38,429 bases of DNA. Source: Candidatus Sumerlaeota bacterium (GTDB lineage: Bacteria; Sumerlaeota; Sumerlaeia; SLMS01). The first letter of the stretch is position 1. Each line of letters opens with the position of its first letter. Positions 2,390-21,132 of the stretch are shown here, one piece after another. The stretch spans positions 1 through 38,429 of the forward strand of contig SLOM01000218.1 of assembly GCA_007132505.1 (NCBI GenBank). The letters run 5' to 3'. The notes beneath the pieces are model-generated. The model was not told the DNA's origin. It saw nothing but the letters and a program-made list of their open reading frames with translations, and searched no databases. Made by a program: the position numbers and the translations under genes.

Positions 2390-2418
2390 TTGATGGGTGT
2401 GGCTGCCGCTACTATCCG
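2390..2418 (+). promoter_or_regulatory. Candidate promoter of the gre gene
   Basis: TTGATG (2390-2395), a 17-base spacer and TATCCG (2413-2418) match the housekeeping layout at 4/6 and 3/6 positions. The same TTGnnn-N17-TATCCG form precedes the polyprenyl synthase gene (28471-28499). It is placed about 55 bases before the gre start. Weak on sequence alone. Confidence 0.3.
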
Positions 2419-2474
2419 GCGCCGTTCGAGGGTGCGCCACCCGGGCGGACTCAGGCTTTCAGGGAGGCATGACA

Positions 2475-4733
2475 TTGCAGGCTGAACAGTTGGAATTGCA
2501 GGATCAGATCCTTCAGGCGCTACAGTCAAAGCGCGCCAACCGAGTCAAGGAACTCTGGGGCGAGGTCATCCAAGCGGAAGACCTGCCCGCCATCTTCCAC
2601 AAACCGGTCATTGACAAAATGGCCCGCAAGCAGGACCGGCACGAATTCGAGGACCTCTACCGCCAGGTCTTCGAGCTACTCGCCGCCGCCGACCGCCACG
2701 ACCAGGTGGTCGAACTGTCCGAGTACCTTCTGGCCCACGGCTGGGAACCGGACTTCCTCCGGCCGCTGCTCGTGGATGCCGTCCGGGCCGCGTACGCCCA
2801 GGGTACCTCCGGGCGTGTCGGCGAGCTGGTCGAACGGTCCGGTCTAACCGACGGGGCCACACCCCTCAAGAAGGCTTGGTTTGTTTTCTCGGACCTGCTC
2901 GGAGCCACAAAAGGGCAGGTCTTTTTTCATCGTAGCTGGGGGCTGGGTGTCGTCCGCGAACTGGACATTGACCGCGGGCGGGTCGTGGTGGACTTCGCCT
3001 CGCGGCGTGGCCAGCAGATGACCCTCGACGGCGTGCGCCAGTTCCTGGTCCGCGTGCCCCGGGACCACATCCGGGCTTACATCGCGCTCGAACCCCAAGA
3101 ACTCAGGGAACAGGCAAAGGCAAAGCCCGGCGAGGTGGTGAAGCTGGCCCTGCGCAGCTTCAATGGCCGCATGAAGGTTGCCGAGCTCAAGCGCCTGCTC
3201 ACAGACCGCTTCCTTACCGACGCGGAATTCCGAAGCTTTTGGAACAACGCAAAGAAAGCCATCAAGCTCGACCCGTGGATTGATGCCAACGGCACCACCG
3301 CGACTGCCGAGCTGAGCCTGCGGGACAATCCGCGCACGTTCCTCGACGCCTGCTTCACCCAGCTTCTCAGGGCCGGCACCGTGCAGTCTCGCCGCGAAGT
3401 ACTCCGGGACGTACGCCGGCACGGCTCCGAGGCGGAAATGAACGAGCAGGACAGCGAAGCCCTCTATCAGCTCATGTGCAAGCCCGTCCATGAAGGTGTC
3501 TTCCTTACGGACACCGGGAAGCTCAACCATGGCCTCCTGTTTGCCGAGTTTGAGGACCTGTTCCCCGGGAAGGAAAACCCGTGCGAGGTGGACGAGCTTC
3601 TGGCGGCTGAGGACCCCGTGCCGCTCGTGGAGCGGCTGGAGGTGGCCGACCTTCGCCGCCTGGCCCTGGAAAGAATCCGGGTGCTTCACCCCGAACATTG
3701 GCAGGAGCACTTCGCCGAGGCGATTCTTGGCTTGGAGCCACGCACGGCAGCTTGGATGGAGCAGGAACTCCTCGAGCACGGGTTCGAACACGAATGGCAC
3801 GTGGCACTGGAACGCATTCTGGCCAAGCCGCACGTCAATCCGGACCTGTTTGTCTGGGCGGCGAAGAACCTCCTGGACGGACGCTGGGAGCACCTGCACG
3901 ACAGCATCCCGCCGATCATGGTCTTCGAGGAGCTGCTCTCCCTGCTCTCCGAGCTGGAGGAAGCAGTCGAGTCCGGCGCGGAGCCACGGGCCAGCCAAGC
4001 GCGCAGCTCCTCGGCAAAGGTCCGCGCCGTCCTGAGCGACGGCAACAGTGCCCGCTTCCGGAAGGCGGTCATTGCGGCAAACGTCCAGGAGGCCCGCCGG
4101 GTGCTCCTCATGATCCGGCTGCATAACTCCCTTTCCAACCAGCTCAAACAATCACTCGAAATGATCGTCGTGCACAACCACGAGGAACTCCGCCGCGTGG
4201 GCCGCGCCGAGGAAGAGGAGGCCCGCGCCACGCCACGCCACCATCGCACCACCAAGGCGGCACTGGAAGCAAAGCGCTCGGAGCTCTCCCGTCTCACCTC
4301 CGCCGAGATTCCCGCAACGTCAGCCCGCATCGAGGAAGCTCGCGAGCACGGCGACCTGCGCGAAAACTCCGAATACCACGCGGCGAAGGAGCGGCTGGCG
4401 CAGCTTCAGCAGGCGGCATCCGAACTCGAGGAACTCATCGCCCGCGCAAGACTGGTGGAGCCGGATGATGTCTCGACGGAACACTCAGGTTTCGGCACAC
4501 GTCTGCGCCTGCGTAACACGGCGACCGGCGAGGAGCGCCACCTGACCATCCTTGGCATGTGGGAGTCCGACCCGAACAACAACATCATCTCCGATCAGAC
4601 ACACGTCGGCAAGCAGATGGTCGGTCACAAGCCGGGGGATGTTTTTGCAGTGACACTGCCGGACCAGAGCAGCGCAGAATATGAACTGCTCGAAATCCAA
4701 AACGCCCTCAAGGAAATGGTCAGTCCGTCTTGA
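2475..4733 (+). CDS. greA: Transcription elongation factor of the GreA/GreB family with a ~590-residue N-terminal extension
   Basis: 752 residues, against about 158 for ordinary GreA. The last ~155 residues are a complete Gre factor: the coiled-coil finger with EHGDLRENSEYHAAKERL, which keeps the tip acids (D and E of GDLRE) needed for RNA cleavage in stalled RNA polymerase, then the FKBP-like C-terminal domain (SDQTHVGKQMVGHKPGD). The first ~590 residues are mostly helical and of unknown role, with a short beta-rich insert (FHRSWGLGVVRELDIDRGRV) about 150 residues in that resembles a small barrel binding module. Long GreA proteins are known in Chlamydiae and some relatives. The start is uncertain: the strong GGGAGG at 2462-2467 is only one base from ATG 2469 but 7 bases from TTG 2475, so TTG is preferred. 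The next gene overlaps the stop. Confidence 0.88.
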   Translation: MQAEQLELQDQILQALQSKRANRVKELWGEVIQAEDLPAIFHKPVIDKMARKQDRHEFEDLYRQVFELLAAADRHDQVVELSEYLLAHGWEPDFLRPLLVDAVRAAYAQGTSGRVGELVERSGLTDGATPLKKAWFVFSDLLGATKGQVFFHRSWGLGVVRELDIDRGRVVVDFASRRGQQMTLDGVRQFLVRVPRDHIRAYIALEPQELREQAKAKPGEVVKLALRSFNGRMKVAELKRLLTDRFLTDAEFRSFWNNAKKAIKLDPWIDANGTTATAELSLRDNPRTFLDACFTQLLRAGTVQSRREVLRDVRRHGSEAEMNEQDSEALYQLMCKPVHEGVFLTDTGKLNHGLLFAEFEDLFPGKENPCEVDELLAAEDPVPLVERLEVADLRRLALERIRVLHPEHWQEHFAEAILGLEPRTAAWMEQELLEHGFEHEWHVALERILAKPHVNPDLFVWAAKNLLDGRWEHLHDSIPPIMVFEELLSLLSELEEAVESGAEPRASQARSSSAKVRAVLSDGNSARFRKAVIAANVQEARRVLLMIRLHNSLSNQLKQSLEMIVVHNHEELRRVGRAEEEEARATPRHHRTTKAALEAKRSELSRLTSAEIPATSARIEEAREHGDLRENSEYHAAKERLAQLQQAASELEELIARARLVEPDDVSTEHSGFGTRLRLRNTATGEERHLTILGMWESDPNNNIISDQTHVGKQMVGHKPGDVFAVTLPDQSSAEYELLEIQNALKEMVSPS

Positions 4734-5956: not shown

Positions 5957-7117
5957 ATGGACCAGGGAGCAGAGTGCCGCGTTTGCCGTATCCACAATCC
6001 GCCGGGTCAGGCTCGGTGCATACGGTGCCGGGCAGCGTTGGGTCCGCGGGAGGCCACCATTTCGGGCAATGCCGCGGGGCGATGGCTGTGCCTGCCCCGA
6101 CTGCCAGCCCCGCTCCGGCGGGTGTGGTACGCCCTTGCGAAGCAAGGCGCCCAGGGCCTTCCGGCGGGGACCGGTCATCGCTTTCCATGGACCGCCGGGT
6201 ATCTCGGGCTCTTCCTCGGCGCGGGGCAGTGGTATAATCACCAGCCCCGCAAGGCCATTGCGATGGGACTCGTCCAGGCGGGCCTAATCGCGTGGGCGGT
6301 GACCAATCTTTATCATCCGTGGAACAACTGGATGCTGCTGGCCGCACTGGCTTGGACGCTGTTCATGATGGGGGAGGCGTTCTCCACGGCGGTGCGGATC
6401 AACGGGCAGCCCTGGCGGTTGCGGTTGCTGCTGGCGCTCTGGTCGTCCCTTTTCTTCTTCGTGGGCCTGACGCTGATCGGGCTTCAGTTCTTCGGCCACG
6501 GGGTGTTCACCCTCACGACCGTGAGGAGCCCCGACCTCGGCCCACACCTGGCGCGCGGGGACAAGGTCTTCGTCCTGAACCGCTGGTTCCTGCGCCATGA
6601 GGTGCAGCCGGGCGACGTTGTCTATTTCAGCCAGACCAACAGCTATACTTACCAGGTCGAAGGTGGATTAGGAATGGACTACTTCACGGTGCGGGAATCT
6701 TCCGCCTTCGGCGTGGTTACCGGCTTGCCGGGACAGGTGGTGGAGCGTATAGACGACGAGCACATTTTCGTGGATGGCGAACCCGCACCACCGGCTCTCC
6801 TGCCTGTCAACCCGGCAGGATTCCCCTCCGGATTCCGTATTGAGGCGCCGGAGGCCCACTACGCGATTCTGCCGTCCCACCCGATCACCGACCGCGGGAC
6901 TTCCGCCATGATGGGCCGAGACGCCAGCGTCGCGGCTCCCCGGGACATGCTGCTTCAGGACAGGATTCTCGTGGACTATCCTCAGGGTGCCTCCGTGGCA
7001 CGCGGCGACATCCGCGGGGTGGTGCTCTTTTGCTATCACCCGCCGCCGCGCCGGCGGTGGTTCGGCCGCGGAGGCGGATTGTGGGACGACTACCCGGAGG
7101 ACTTCCTCTCGCAATGA
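5957..7117 (+). CDS. RanBP2-like zinc finger / membrane / signal-peptidase-like protein, catalytic dyad lost (first paralog)
   Basis: 386 residues in three parts. (1) Residues 7-24 are C-x2-C-x3-N-x6-C-x2-C (C7, C10, N14, C21, C24), the exact spacing of RanBP2-type zinc fingers but without the leading Trp. (2) A membrane block (about 77-180) begins with a GAGQWYNHQPRKA stretch like that of TM2-type domains and has three or four hydrophobic helices. (3) Residues about 186-365 follow the signal peptidase I (S26) fold: RSPDLGPHLARGDKVF for box B, QPGDVVYF for box C, FGVVTGLPGQVVERID and FVDGEP for box D. The catalytic Ser position is D193 and the general-base Lys position is G252, and the GDNR box is replaced by SHPITDRG. 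So it is probably not a peptidase. It ends in ATGA overlap with its paralog. Function unknown. Confidence 0.8.
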   Translation: MDQGAECRVCRIHNPPGQARCIRCRAALGPREATISGNAAGRWLCLPRLPAPLRRVWYALAKQGAQGLPAGTGHRFPWTAGYLGLFLGAGQWYNHQPRKAIAMGLVQAGLIAWAVTNLYHPWNNWMLLAALAWTLFMMGEAFSTAVRINGQPWRLRLLLALWSSLFFFVGLTLIGLQFFGHGVFTLTTVRSPDLGPHLARGDKVFVLNRWFLRHEVQPGDVVYFSQTNSYTYQVEGGLGMDYFTVRESSAFGVVTGLPGQVVERIDDEHIFVDGEPAPPALLPVNPAGFPSGFRIEAPEAHYAILPSHPITDRGTSAMMGRDASVAAPRDMLLQDRILVDYPQGASVARGDIRGVVLFCYHPPPRRRWFGRGGGLWDDYPEDFLSQ

Positions 7118-8277
7118 GCCAGGGCACCCGCTGCAACCTATGCGGCTTCCATAACCCGCCGGGACGGGCCCGATGCGTGCGCTGCAGCGCCATGCTGGGC
7201 TCGCGGAAATTGGAAGGCGCGGAGAAGCGAGCCGGGAAACTGCGCGACATGCCCGATCCACTCGCACCCCTCCGCCGGCTGGCCTACGCCGTCGGGCGAC
7301 GCTTCGATGACAGCCTCCCCACCGGCGTTCCGCACCGCTTTCCGTGGACGGCGGGCTACCTTGGACTGCTGTTCGGCGCCGGTCAGTGGTACAATTATCA
7401 GCCAAAGAAGGCCATGGCGATGGGACTCGTTCAGGCGGGGCTCCTCGCGTGGTGGGCGGTAAACTTCTTCCATCCCGCCAGCAACCTCATACTGCTCCTG
7501 ACGCTGGGCTGGAGCCTTTACATGATGGCGGACGCCTTCTCCGCCGCAGTGCGGATCAACGGGCAGCCGTGGCGGCTGAAGTTTCTGTTCGCAGTGTGGT
7601 TTTCGCTCTTCTTCTTCGTGGGATTCACCCTCTTCGTGTTCCAGTGTTTCGGCTATGGGGTGTTCAACCTGACGACGGTGCGGTCCACCGGGATGGGGCC
7701 GCAGCTCGAGCGGGGAGACAAGGTCTTCACCCTGATGCGATGGTTCGCACCGGGAGACATCCGCCCGGGGGATGTGGTCTATTTCCGGCAGACGAACAGC
7801 TACACCTATCAGGACCGCACCGGCAGCACCTACACCGTCCGCGAGCAGACCTCCTTCGGCGTCGTGACGGCACTGGAGGGCCAGACCGTCGAGCGTATAG
7901 ACGACGGGCACATCTTCGTGGACGGGGAACCCGTCCCGCCGGAGCTTCTTCCCATCAACCCGGACGGATTCCCCTCCGGCTTCCGCATCGAGGTGCCGGA
8001 GGGTCACTACGCGGTGCTGCCTACTCACGCCGTGACCGACCGTGGGATCATCGCGATGCTGGCCGCGGGAGGGCTCTCCGTCCGCCCGCCAAGAGAGATG
8101 CTCGAACAGGGCCTCCTCCTCCGGAATTACGACAGGGGGAGCATCGTCGCTCGTGAGGATATCTACGGGATCGTCCTCTTCCGCTACCACCCGCCACCAC
8201 GGCGTGAGTGGTTCGGCCGGGGGGGCGGCCTCTGGAGCAACTACCCGGAGGGCTTCCTGGCCGAACCGGAGGAGTGA
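7114..8277 (+). CDS. RanBP2-like zinc finger / membrane / signal-peptidase-like protein, catalytic dyad lost (second paralog)
   Basis: 387 residues; a tandem duplicate of the gene before it, collinear with no shift from residue 1 to about 230. The zinc-finger residues sit at the same positions (C7, C10, N14, C21, C24), and the membrane block (GAGQWYNYQPKKA) and S26-like domain are in the same order. The nucleophile position is G193 (RSTGMGPQLERGD) and the Lys position G249; box D GLPG has become ALEG. Both copies keep the Ser at 191, which in true signal peptidases supports the oxyanion hole, as well as GDVVYF and VDGEP. Loss in two different ways (Asp, Gly) argues that the fold, not catalysis, is under selection. 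The start ATG at 7114 overlaps the previous stop; there is no need for an upstream start. Confidence 0.8.
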   Translation: MSQGTRCNLCGFHNPPGRARCVRCSAMLGSRKLEGAEKRAGKLRDMPDPLAPLRRLAYAVGRRFDDSLPTGVPHRFPWTAGYLGLLFGAGQWYNYQPKKAMAMGLVQAGLLAWWAVNFFHPASNLILLLTLGWSLYMMADAFSAAVRINGQPWRLKFLFAVWFSLFFFVGFTLFVFQCFGYGVFNLTTVRSTGMGPQLERGDKVFTLMRWFAPGDIRPGDVVYFRQTNSYTYQDRTGSTYTVREQTSFGVVTALEGQTVERIDDGHIFVDGEPVPPELLPINPDGFPSGFRIEVPEGHYAVLPTHAVTDRGIIAMLAAGGLSVRPPREMLEQGLLLRNYDRGSIVAREDIYGIVLFRYHPPPRREWFGRGGGLWSNYPEGFLAEPEE

Positions 8278-11499: not shown

Positions 11500-12240
11500 A
11501 TGCTCCCTGACGTTCAGAAGCTGCTCGATCTTCAGGAAATCGATCGCGAGATTCTCGACCTGAAGTCCCAACTGGCCCGTTACCCAGTCGTCTGGGAAGA
11601 GACGAAAAAGCGCATGGCGCAACGCAAGGCGGATCACGAGGCCGCCCGGAAGAGGCTGGAGGACAATCTCGATCAGCGCCGGCGCAAGGAGCAGCGCATC
11701 AAGAACTGGCTGACCGACCTGCAGCGCAGCCAGACCCGCCTGTCCCTCAGCAAGACGGAGAAGGAGTATCAGGCCGCCAACAAGGAGCTCGAGAAGATCC
11801 GCGAAAAGCTCCAAAAGGAAGAGGAAGACGTCAACCTGCTGGTCGAGGAAGCCTCCCGGCGGGAGGAAGAGGAAGTGGAGGAGCGCGGCAAGCTGGAGGA
11901 GTTCAAGGAGTTCTACCTCTCCGAGCGCCAGCGCATCCGCTCGCAGTTCAACGAGAAGAAGGCCCGCGTGGCCGAGCTTGACCGGGAACGTGCGGCACGA
12001 GCTGAGCGGGTGCCCGACGACCTCCGCCACCTCTATGAGCGGGTTCACAAGATGCACCCGGGTTCCGCGGTCGTGCCGGTCCGCGGCGCAAGCTGCACGG
12101 GATGCCACTACAGCCTGCTGCCCGACGTGATGGTCACCCTGCACCGGGGCGATGAACTGGTGATCTGCCCGAATTGCGGCAGAATTCTCGCTTACGACGA
12201 GGAGTTCGTGCCGGAGGAGCAGGACGCCGCCGTCAGCTAG
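11500..12240 (+). CDS. Coiled-coil protein with C-terminal C4 zinc ribbon (zf-RING_7 / CdsZ-like)
   Basis: 246 residues. The first ~180 are a long antiparallel coiled coil rich in Glu, Lys and Arg with the conserved SKTEKEYQAANKELEKIREK stretch. The tail has the zinc ribbon C-x2-C (CTGCHYSLLP) and C-x2-C (CPNCGRILAY) separated by about 22 residues. This is the widespread zf-RING_7 (DUF164) family, which includes CdsZ (CT398) of Chlamydia; a type III secretion role there need not apply here, since no secretion gene is in the window. The start ATG 11500 (MLPDVQKLLDLQEID) is preferred over an upstream GTG (11431) because family members begin just before the LLxLQxID motif. The lipoprotein gene follows after 29 bases, probably in one transcript. 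Confidence 0.85.
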   Translation: MLPDVQKLLDLQEIDREILDLKSQLARYPVVWEETKKRMAQRKADHEAARKRLEDNLDQRRRKEQRIKNWLTDLQRSQTRLSLSKTEKEYQAANKELEKIREKLQKEEEDVNLLVEEASRREEEEVEERGKLEEFKEFYLSERQRIRSQFNEKKARVAELDRERAARAERVPDDLRHLYERVHKMHPGSAVVPVRGASCTGCHYSLLPDVMVTLHRGDELVICPNCGRILAYDEEFVPEEQDAAVS

Positions 12241-12269
12241 GCGCGAAAAAGAACCAAGGAAGAACCGAA

Positions 12270-13448
12270 ATGAAGAGAGCGGGTTTGCTGGTGCTCCTGG
12301 GGGTGATCCTCACGGCTGCCGCAGGTTGCAGCCGCATTGTCGTCGAGTCGAGCCCGCCTGGGGCGCAGGTCGTCTGGTCGCCGGACGGTGTGCAGCCCTA
12401 TCAGCCATGGCCACCCAGCGCTTGGGAAATCACCTCTTCCAACAGAAACGCCATGACCCCCTTCCGCAGCGCGGGAAGCTACCGTGATTCGGTCTTCGTC
12501 ACCGTGGAGAAGGACGGGTACATGCGCCCGATGCCCAAACTGGTGCAGCTTTATGGGTTCCGGGGCGAGAAGCTCCACTTTGACCTGACAGAGACACCCG
12601 ACGCCTTCGCGGCCCGCATGCGTGAGCAAGGGAAGCTCTTCTTCAGGGGTGAGTGGGTGGACCCGGAGGAGGCCGGCGTCGTCGAATACAATGGCGTTGT
12701 CATGACAAAGGAAGAGGCCTTCCGCCAGGAGCAGCTCGCCCAAGGACTGATCGAATACGACGGCGAATGGATGACTCCCGAGGAAGCAGACGAGCGCGAG
12801 ACAGAACGGCGCCTCGCAGAGGGTTATGTCCGCTTCAAAGGCCGCTGGGTCACACCCGAGGTGCAGGAAGCGGAAGAGCGCATTGACGAGGAAGTGGCCG
12901 CCATCGCCGAGGAGGGTGACTTCTATGAGATGCCCACTCCCCGGGTGGTCGGCCGGCAGCTCATCAGCGAAGCCCAGATCCAACTTTACAACAGCACGGG
13001 TCAGGTAGTCCGGTTCCTCTTCAGCGGCCCGGTAAGCCGGGAATACACGCTTGACCCCTACCGCAGCCGCGGGGTGCGGACCGAGGACCGCATCATCCTG
13101 CCGCCCGCAGAGTACGAAATCGCCATTGTGCCCACAGGAAGGGACGGTTCCGGCCGGGACCTGCGCGAACTGGCCGCGCGCTTGGGCGGCGAGCATGCCG
13201 ACGCCCTGTCCACCGATCCGGTGCTGGGAACTTGGACCCTCACCGCCGGCTCGCAGGTGAGCTTCAACTACGCAGGCGGGGGCGATGCATTGGACATGCC
13301 ACTCGACGACACGGACATCATCGTGCCGGAGTTCGAAATAGACGCGCCGGACATTGAGATCCCCGAGTTCGAACGTCGCGAGCAGCCCCAGCGCAGGCCA
13401 CCCGGCGGACCGCCGCCAGGCGGTGGAGGCGGCGGGCGCCAGCAGTAG
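12270..13448 (+). CDS. Lipoprotein with PEGA-like N-terminus and four short G-x-W-x-x-P-E-E repeats
   Basis: 392 residues. The signal peptide ends in the lipobox LTAAAGC with C20 as the lipidated Cys. SRIVVESSPPGAQVVW then VTVEKDGYMRP resembles a PEGA domain (surface adhesion or wall-associated). Residues 121-198 hold four related units of about 20-26 residues: FFRGEWVDPEE, EYNGVVMTKEE, EYDGEWMTPEE and RFKGRWVTPE, joined by charged helices; the second is degenerate. A beta-rich part (about 225-340) follows, then acidic repeats (DIIVPEFEID, DIEIPEFER) and a Pro/Gly-rich end. AAGGAAGA (12256 on) is the ribosome site. Function unknown; a periplasmic outer-membrane or inner-membrane lipoprotein. 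It converges with ada, 13 bases between the two stop codons. Confidence 0.8.
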   Translation: MKRAGLLVLLGVILTAAAGCSRIVVESSPPGAQVVWSPDGVQPYQPWPPSAWEITSSNRNAMTPFRSAGSYRDSVFVTVEKDGYMRPMPKLVQLYGFRGEKLHFDLTETPDAFAARMREQGKLFFRGEWVDPEEAGVVEYNGVVMTKEEAFRQEQLAQGLIEYDGEWMTPEEADERETERRLAEGYVRFKGRWVTPEVQEAEERIDEEVAAIAEEGDFYEMPTPRVVGRQLISEAQIQLYNSTGQVVRFLFSGPVSREYTLDPYRSRGVRTEDRIILPPAEYEIAIVPTGRDGSGRDLRELAARLGGEHADALSTDPVLGTWTLTAGSQVSFNYAGGGDALDMPLDDTDIIVPEFEIDAPDIEIPEFERREQPQRRPPGGPPPGGGGGGRQQ

Positions 13449-18741: not shown

Positions 18742-21132
18742 ATGAACGGGCGCGACAGCTTCCTGCTGCTCACACTCCTCGGCCTGCTGCTCATGACGGG
18801 ACAGCAGGCCGATGCCAATCCGCCAGCGAGGGACTCACTCCTCGCGGATCGGGATCTCCTTCCAGCCGCCCATGCGGACTTCCTCCTGGAGGGGCCCTAC
18901 CTCTACAAGGTCCACCGCCGCAGCCGCGACCTGATCGCGGAGGACCTGAACGGAAACGGGCTGCTGGACCTCGCTGTGGTCTCGAACGAGCGCAGCCTGC
19001 TCGAAGTCTTCCACCAGCGCGAGGACGCCGAAGGCTGGGAGGACCGCTTCGAGAAGAATACAGTCACGCTCGACCGCATCATCCGCGGCGTCGTGCCCCA
19101 GGACGTGAACGGCAACGGGCGCATGGACCTGCTCATGGCCGCCTCACCGGCTCGTCTCGTCGTCATGTACCAGGACGAGAACGGCCGGCTCCAGCCACCG
19201 CAGGAGACAGCACTGGAAGCGGACAGCATCGTGGCGGGAGACCTGACCGGCAACGGACACAACGACATCCTGGTGATGCGGGACCGGCGGGCAAAGATCC
19301 TCCACGGCGGGCCACGCGGTGTTGAACTCGAGCCGGCGGATGTCTTCCACACCAGCGGCGACCCGGCCGGCAGGCCCATGATAATGGACTTCGACGGCGA
19401 CGGGCTCGCGGACATCGTTTACCTCGACGGGTCGGACAACGAGAAGCTCGTGGTCCGATTCCAGACCGCCGAGCGCGCCTTCCCTTCGGAAGTACGCATG
19501 AGGACGAGCGCCCTGCGCACCGTCGCGCCCATGCCACCATCCCGGCCCGGCGCTGCTTCCACCGTGGCCGCCATCCAGAACCAGACGCGCCACCTCGTGC
19601 AGATTGGCCTGACGCCGGCCCTCGAGCTGCAGGAGCTCGACCGCCGCGCACTGCCGCTGTCACTCCCGCAGACCTACCCCTTCAACCCAGAGCGCCGGTC
19701 GCCCCGCTCCGCAAGCATCCCCGTGGACGTGGACGGGGACGGCCGCATGGACGTGGTTGTCTATTCGCCGGACCTCTCGGTCATGCGCATCTTCCGGCAG
19801 ACACGGGCCGGCGACCTCAAGGAAACCTCCAGCCCCACCCTCGAAGGCATCACCCAGGTGATTCCCTTCCCCACCGTGGAGAACGAATCCACGCCGATGG
19901 TGGTCTTCTCGCCGGGCGAGCGCGCCATCGGTTTCGTCCGTCAGTCCGCCGGAGGAGCGGGGCTTCGCTTCCCGCGCCTGCTCTCCGTGCCCGGACATCC
20001 CAGGGCCATTGCACTGCTCGAGGACGATGGGGAGATGCTCCTCGCCGTGGCCGGTACGACGGGCGACGACGACGCCATGAAGGTGGCCGGCTATCCCATC
20101 ACCCGCGACGGCGAACTGGGCGAGCGACGCATCCTTTTCCCGCCGGATGATGAGGAGGACAGCCAGGACCTGCGCGCCAGCATGGGAGGCCGCAATCCGG
20201 TCGGCATGACGACCGTTGACCTGAACCGCAACGGCCGGCAGGACCTCGTCATTTACGTGGAGTTCAACCCGGCGGTGCTGCTTCTCCAGCAGGAGGACGG
20301 CACATTCCGCCTCCTCGACGCCGCGTCCGGTGTCCTGGAAGGACTCCTGAGCGACGCCCGGCCGGGGACCCTCAGCGAGGCACGCCTTGACGGGCCTGAC
20401 AGCCCCACCGCCGCATTGGCACTCCGCGATCGTTTCGTTCGCGCCTTCACCATCACCGGCGACGGCAATGTCGAAGTGGAGCACCAGCTCAATGCCCGGA
20501 ACCGTAACTCGCGGCTGATAGGCATGGCAGTCGGACACCTCCGCGGCAGGGAAAACCCCGAAGTGATCCTGCTCGACCGGGGGAATCGCATTCTCACCAT
20601 CCACGGCACCGATGAGGAGGGCGAGTACCAGCCACTCACGCACGTGGACCTTGGCGGCAGGGATTACCTGGCAGTCAACGCCGTGGACCTGGACGGGGAC
20701 GGGACGGCGGACATCGTCCTCACCGGCGAAGACCGGCTGGACGTCATATACGGACGCCCGGCCTTCGGAGCGCTTGAGGTAAAGGGCACCGCGGCCCCCG
20801 TGGACGACGAGGGCGGCTACGGCGCCGTCTATACGGGCCAACTGCTTCCCGGGCAGGGACACGATGTCATGACCGTCGAAATGCGGGATCACCTGCTGGA
20901 GTTCTTCGTCCCCGGACAGGACGACGAGGAGCGGCCGGCCCTGCACCGCTTCTATACATTCAAGATGTTCGACAGCGATGCGTCCATCGCCCGCCGGCCG
21001 AATCTGGACGCACCGCCCGAGCCGCGGGAACTCATCACCGCCGACATAACGGGCGACGGGTACATGGAGATCATCGCCCTTACCCACGACAACATCATCG
21101 TTTACGTTCAGACGGAGGAGGAGGGGGACTGA
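18742..21132 (+). CDS. Exported FG-GAP/VCBS repeat beta-propeller protein
   Basis: 796 residues. A hydrophobic signal peptide (about 5-25) is followed by repeated blade units, each with a calcium-binding loop of integrin alpha type. Eight or so loops can be seen: [84 protein letters not shown] and [13 protein letters not shown]. Together they would form one or two seven-bladed propellers. No enzyme domain or anchor motif is seen. Such proteins are surface or secreted binding proteins in PVC/FCB bacteria. No clear ribosome site precedes ATG 18742. TreS begins 61 bases after its stop. Confidence 0.88.

What the first reader, a model, noticed from the sequence alone, without database searches (positions are those of the whole stretch)
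5957..8277. Tandem zinc-finger / membrane / signal-peptidase-like proteins with both catalytic residues gone
Both proteins keep boxes B, C and D of signal peptidase I (the conserved Ser191, GDKVF, PGDVVYF, VDGEP), yet the nucleophile position is Asp193 or Gly193, the general-base Lys is Gly in each, and the GDNR box is replaced. Each also carries an N-terminal zinc finger and a TM2-like membrane block in the same order. Loss in two different ways with the rest kept implies a non-peptidase role, such as a membrane receptor or a chaperone for exported proteins. I know of no described system with this architecture.
Basis: partly seen in the sequence, partly recalled or inferred. Interest (0 to 1): 0.72.

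Follow-up and report, generated by a model that had tools for sequence, protein, structure and literature searches.

The report
Dead signal peptidases in a new module
Two neighbouring bacterial membrane proteins look like the enzyme that trims export signals but lack its catalytic residues; relatives in several phyla share that loss and sit in a conserved gene cluster with an ATPase motor and small proteins of unknown function, so the family probably binds rather than cuts exported proteins.

Summary
ORF A (5957-7117) and ORF B (7114-8277, overlapping A by ATGA; 62% identical) each encode a C4 zinc ribbon, a three-helix membrane block and a signal-peptidase-I (S26) domain. Position 193 (nucleophile) is Asp/Gly, the general-base Lys is Gly, and GDN is gone. 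The genome is Candidatus Sumerlaeota and has two separate S26 proteins with intact motifs. The loss is not private to this pair. The family occurs in 25 of 40 Sumerlaeota genomes and in a few genomes of four other phyla; in 30 aligned members the Lys is never present (E/Q/G/S/A), GDN never, Ser in three. The pair is a genus-level duplication under purifying selection. The closest solved relatives of B by direct sequence search are LepA and SipA; SipA carries the same Asp/Gly swap and is a non-catalytic pilus-assembly factor. New here: the family is tied to DUF2997 proteins (just upstream in 10 Sumerlaeota genomes) and, outside Sumerlaeota, lies in a cluster of Ycf46-like AAA+ ATPase, DUF1257, DUF2997, this protein, TPR and usually PilT. 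Best reading: a membrane-anchored, non-cleaving receptor for exported peptides, coupled on the cytosolic side to that module. Peptide binding and the module's job are inferred, not shown.

The parts
5957..7117 (+). ORF A: zinc ribbon / membrane block / S26-like protein, 386 aa
   Evidence: 82% identical to the orthologue in sister species G026
5975..6028 (+). A: C4 zinc ribbon, Cys7/10/21/24
   Evidence: four Cys invariant in 27 of 27 members
6176..6511 (+). A: membrane block (three predicted helices) with family-invariant YN-x-Q-x2-K motif
   Evidence: hydropathy and charge; invariant columns
6512..7051 (+). A: S26-like extracytoplasmic domain
6533..6535 (+). A: nucleophile position, Asp193 instead of Ser
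6710..6712 (+). A: general-base position, Gly252 instead of Lys
7114..8277 (+). ORF B: tandem paralogue, 387 aa, start codon overlaps A's stop (ATGA)
7132..7185 (+). B: C4 zinc ribbon
7333..7668 (+). B: membrane block
7669..8208 (+). B: S26-like extracytoplasmic domain
   Evidence: PF10502 E=3e-6
7690..7692 (+). B: nucleophile position, Gly193 instead of Ser
7858..7860 (+). B: general-base position, Gly249 instead of Lys

Best explanation
A and B are duplicated members of an old family of catalytically dead signal peptidases. Each is anchored by three membrane helices with the zinc ribbon in the cytosol and the S26-like domain outside. Shown: homology to S26, loss of the Ser-Lys dyad and GDN box across the family, purifying selection on the g1 copies, duplication within this lineage, linkage to DUF2997 proteins in other members, and location of relatives outside Sumerlaeota in a Ycf46-like AAA+ / DUF1257 / DUF2997 / TPR / (usually) PilT cluster. 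Inferred: the topology (from hydropathy and charge); that the S26 domain still binds signal-peptide-like or other extended segments of exported proteins without cutting; that the zinc ribbon docks the DUF2997 protein, and through it the AAA+ ATPase, at the membrane, so that binding outside is coupled to an ATP-driven action inside (handling of an exported or envelope substrate, possibly of a PilT-dependent surface apparatus). The tandem copies would be specialised versions or halves of a heterodimer.
For: Dead in all: Lys 0/30, Ser 3/30, GDN 0/30, while all six S26 comparators keep K-R and GDN or GDC (one comparator, L005, is misaligned at the Ser column there, but its MIPTGSM motif is intact). 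Own genome has two separate S26 proteins with intact motifs on contigs C181 and C171. Selection: dN/dS 0.20 (A) and 0.18 (B) between sister species. Spread: 25/40 Sumerlaeota, G167, G257, G300, G311, G511. DUF2997 link: a DUF2997-like ORF just upstream in G013, G014, G015, G016, G028, G029, G030, G032, G033, G035 and G167; profile match to the DUF2997 set at 97.7%, E=2e-12, that set being PF11211 at 1e-12 to 5e-14 for two members; genome co-occurrence 23 both, 12 neither, 5 one only, Fisher p=6e-6, not corrected for phylogeny. Cluster: AAA-DUF1257-DUF2997-protein-TPR-PilT in this exact order in G311/G432, G511 and G300; rearranged in G257 and, without PilT seen, G167; in Sumerlaeota G034 and G030 the slot holds a zinc-ribbon/membrane protein without the S26 domain. 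Precedent: SipA keeps the binding cleft with Asp48/Gly85 in place of Ser/Lys, has no peptidase activity and is essential for pilus polymerisation (PMC4049620); LepA and SipA are the top PDB hits of B by direct sequence search, at weak E-values of 0.02-0.03.
Against: No peptide binding or interaction is shown. The only structure prediction (4 sequences) had pLDDT 36.6 and is unusable. In this genome the DUF2997 gene (C299) and an AAA+ fragment (end of C145) are unlinked to the pair. Most AAA+ relatives outside the cluster have no DUF1257/DUF2997 beside them, so co-occurrence with the AAA+ gene alone is weak evidence. With the family profile, active-type signal peptidase chains score above SipA, so resemblance to SipA is in the lost residues, not in special sequence kinship. 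In SipA, a cleft mutation did not affect pilus polymerisation, which weakens the peptide-binding analogy.
Confidence: 0.55

Rival explanations
1. The S26 domain no longer binds peptides; it is a structural extracytoplasmic cap or oligomerisation domain on a zinc-ribbon/membrane adaptor whose real work (docking DUF2997 and AAA+) is cytosolic.
For: In Sumerlaeota G034 and G030 the cluster slot holds a zinc-ribbon/membrane protein lacking the S26 domain; in a distant member the S26 part is very diverged (L093: PF10502 E=0.11) while ribbon and membrane block persist.
Against: G030 and G034 also keep full-length S26-bearing members elsewhere; in the g1 pair the S26 part is at least as constrained as the rest (dN/dS 0.15-0.17 against 0.18-0.25).
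Confidence: 0.22
2. An export quality-control factor beside the Sec exit, working with cytosolic Hsp20/Lon, unrelated to pili.
For: In taxonomic family f13 SecG, the DUF2997-like gene, this gene, Hsp20 and Lon lie together in G028, G030 and G035, and in part in G029, G032 and G033.
Against: SecG/Hsp20/Lon linkage was seen only in f13; relatives elsewhere lie beside ABC permeases, rsmE/ydiJ or the AAA/PilT cluster.
Confidence: 0.2
3. Still an active peptidase using another nucleophile or base.
For: Three aligned members have Ser at the nucleophile column (G033, G030, G167); the distant G257 protein has a Ser one column away.
Against: No Lys or His at the base position in 30 members; no conserved Ser or Lys elsewhere in the S26 domain.
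Confidence: 0.03

Closest known systems
Streptococcus pyogenes SipA (PDB 4N31) and LepA (PDB 4K8W)
   Same: S26 homology by sequence; SipA has Asp/Gly at the Ser/Lys positions exactly as ORF A; membrane-anchored, non-catalytic (PMC4049620)
   Different: No zinc ribbon or three-helix block reported for SipA in the passages read; sits in sortase pilus clusters; not closer in sequence to this family than active SPases are
Staphylococcus aureus SpsA (inactive SPase beside active SpsB)
   Same: S26 homologue lacking both catalytic residues, in a genome with an active S26 (PMC12445088)
   Different: Described there only as a dispensable type I SPase homologue; no cluster of the present kind mentioned in the passages read
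DUF2997 / DUF1257 (ycf35) gene pair of cyanobacteria, listed with fed7 (PMC4284462)
   Same: The same two small families side by side
   Different: No zinc-ribbon/S26 protein, TPR or PilT in that listed cluster
Membrane-block S26 proteins with intact motifs (L091, L092, L094)
   Same: Similar membrane block fused before an S26 domain
   Different: No zinc ribbon; SM, KR and GDN or GDC motifs present

Membership tests
Signal peptidase I (MEROPS S26A) | S26 sequence homology | tested here: met
Signal peptidase I (MEROPS S26A) | Catalytic Ser in S-x-S-M box | tested here: not met
   Asp193 / Gly193
Signal peptidase I (MEROPS S26A) | General-base Lys in K-R box | tested here: not met
   Gly252 / Gly249; 0 of 30 members
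Signal peptidase I (MEROPS S26A) | GDN box | tested here: not met
   0 of 30 members
Signal peptidase I (MEROPS S26A) | Score over the curated equivalog cut-off | tested here: not met
   TIGR02227 22.6 and 33.8 against 47 bits
SipA-type pseudo-signal peptidase | Ser/Lys replaced, S26 homology kept | tested here: met
SipA-type pseudo-signal peptidase | Location in a sortase pilus operon | tested here: not met
   no sortase among the neighbours annotated; other clusters found
SipA-type pseudo-signal peptidase | Preserved open peptide-binding cleft | tested here: inconclusive
   model pLDDT 36.6, unusable
RanBP2 zinc finger | Pfam PF00641 over cut-off | tested here: not met
   B 17.8 against 27 bits, E=0.002; A no hit
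Ycf46-like AAA+/DUF1257/DUF2997 module | DUF2997 gene adjacent | tested here: not met
   not in the window; unlinked copy on G000:C299. Met in 10 other Sumerlaeota genomes and in the loci of four other phyla, in G257 with PilT in between
Ycf46-like AAA+/DUF1257/DUF2997 module | Ycf46-like AAA+ gene in the genome | tested here: inconclusive
   only a C-terminal fragment at the end of contig C145 (54% identity over query residues 343-541); full-length in sister G026

The most novel reading that the evidence does not exclude
A conserved, undescribed transmembrane system in at least five phyla: a Ycf46-like AAA+ ATPase, DUF1257, DUF2997, a TPR protein and usually a PilT motor, coupled to a dead signal peptidase that senses or holds exported peptides outside the membrane. 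The window pair belongs to a lineage in which the genes were scattered and the receptor was duplicated.
Probability: 0.35. Interest if true: 0.8.

Novelty: new variant of a known kind. Interest (0 to 1): 0.6.

Why it matters
Pseudo-signal peptidases are known mainly from a few Gram-positive bacteria (to my knowledge). Here a whole family with another architecture recurs across several little-studied phyla, always without the general base and under selection where tested. Its tie to DUF2997, DUF1257 and a Ycf46-like AAA+ ATPase gives those families, known chiefly as plastid and cyanobacterial reading frames of unclear function, a membrane partner and a testable setting outside photosynthesis.

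Tried and rejected
Active peptidase by another dyad: no conserved Ser or Lys in the S26 domain. Decaying pseudogenes: rejected by dN/dS of about 0.2 and conservation of both copies in G026. Function from rsmE/ydiJ neighbours: that order was found only in this taxonomic family. RanBP2 finger: below cut-off. AlphaFold of the pair with its two sister sequences: pLDDT 36.6, so no fold search was made; sequences from the genome search are not on that tool's permitted list and were not submitted. AAA+ co-occurrence as proof of a module: weakened when 40 outside AAA+ loci showed DUF1257/DUF2997 beside only one, weakly (G158). Literature: no paper in the library searched joins Sumerlaeota with signal peptidase or DUF1257 with PilT; the search for pseudoprotease, signal peptidase I and zinc ribbon gave nothing relevant by title and abstract. 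Absence there does not prove novelty.

Full report
1. What is there. ORF A (5957-7117) and ORF B (7114-8277) are real, tandem and overlapping by ATGA. Each has a C4 zinc ribbon, a membrane block and a diverged S26 domain. Hydropathy and charge suggest three helices with the ribbon in the cytosol and the S26 part outside (the three-helix count is my reading of that output). Position 193 is Asp in A and Gly in B; the general-base position is Gly in both; no GDN box exists.

2. Whose genome. The sister contig SLMS01000265.1 is Candidatus Sumerlaeota. The window's genome also carries two S26 proteins with intact motifs, on C181 (GGRSMEP, VKRV, GDNR) and C171 (PTGSMTP, IKRV, GDNS), so A and B are extra.

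3. Family. A search with B finds relatives in 25 of 40 Sumerlaeota genomes and in one further phylum, G167. The family profile adds G300, G311 and G257, and a later search adds G511, in the phylum of G311. In a joint alignment of 30 members with six S26 proteins bearing active motifs, none of the 30 has the Lys (E 15, Q 7, G 6, S 1, A 1), three have Ser at the nucleophile column, and none has GDN. One comparator (L005) is misaligned at the Ser column; its own sequence keeps the motif. The four ribbon Cys and the YN-x-Q-x2-K motif are invariant in the 27-member alignment.

4. Pair. A and B are each 82% identical to their counterparts in G026 and 62% to each other. The tree groups the four g1 sequences with full support and the two A copies within them; the other f1 genomes with a hit have one copy. 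dN/dS is 0.20 for A and 0.18 for B between species. So loss of catalysis predates the duplication.

5. Neighbours. In f1 the gene lies between rsmE and ydiJ in G000, G026 and G022. In f11 and f12 it follows a PHP protein, two ABC permeases and a small protein; in f13 it lies among SecG, the small protein, Hsp20 and Lon, together in G028, G030 and G035 and in part elsewhere. The small protein is a diverged DUF2997 (profile match 97.7%, E=2e-12). It lies just upstream of the gene in ten Sumerlaeota genomes and in G167. Across 40 genomes the two co-occur (23 both, 12 neither, 5 one only; p=6e-6, uncorrected for relatedness). In the window's genome it is on another contig, C299.

6. Cluster. In G311, G432, G511 and G300 the order is Ycf46-like AAA+, DUF1257, DUF2997, this gene, TPR, PilT; in G257 the same genes are rearranged; in G167 all but PilT were seen. 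The name Ycf46-like is my recognition; the tools show AAA and AAA_lid_3 only. Likewise PilT is read from the T2SSE match and the PilT-like motif near the C-terminus. In Sumerlaeota G034 and G030 the same cluster exists, but its slot holds a zinc-ribbon/membrane protein without the S26 domain. Other AAA+ relatives mostly stand alone.

7. Reading. The closest functional precedent is SipA, which has the same Asp/Gly swap, no activity and an essential role in pilus polymerisation (PMC4049620). SpsA is another inactive homologue (PMC12445088). I therefore favour a non-cleaving, membrane-anchored binder of exported segments coupled inside to DUF2997 and AAA+. The peptide binding, the docking and any link to pili are inference. 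The family profile does not place these proteins closer to SipA than to active enzymes, and a cleft mutation in SipA had no effect.

8. Limits. The structure model is unusable. Tree positions of the most distant members are unsure because of long branches. Co-occurrence tests treat genomes as independent, which they are not.

Noticed in passing
L115:4569-9424; L116:4431-9408: Sumerlaeota G034 and G030 carry an AAA+/DUF1257/DUF2997/zinc-ribbon-membrane/TPR/PilT cluster whose membrane protein lacks the S26 domain.
   Followed up: partly
window 12174-13445: A 424 aa ORF without Pfam match, downstream of ydiJ and a C4 zinc-ribbon coiled-coil gene; this order is kept in G026 and G022.
   Followed up: no
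window 2397-4730: A GreA/GreB domain at the C-terminus of a 778 aa protein whose long N-terminal part has no Pfam match.
   Followed up: no
window 18742-21129: A 796 aa FG-GAP repeat protein with a weak match to a TcdB middle/N-terminal model, probably from the shared repeats.
   Followed up: no
L160:6075-9266: In G158 a AAA+/DUF1257/DUF2997 set is followed by a zinc-ribbon protein with no evident membrane block, seemingly with helix-hairpin-helix repeats.
   Followed up: no
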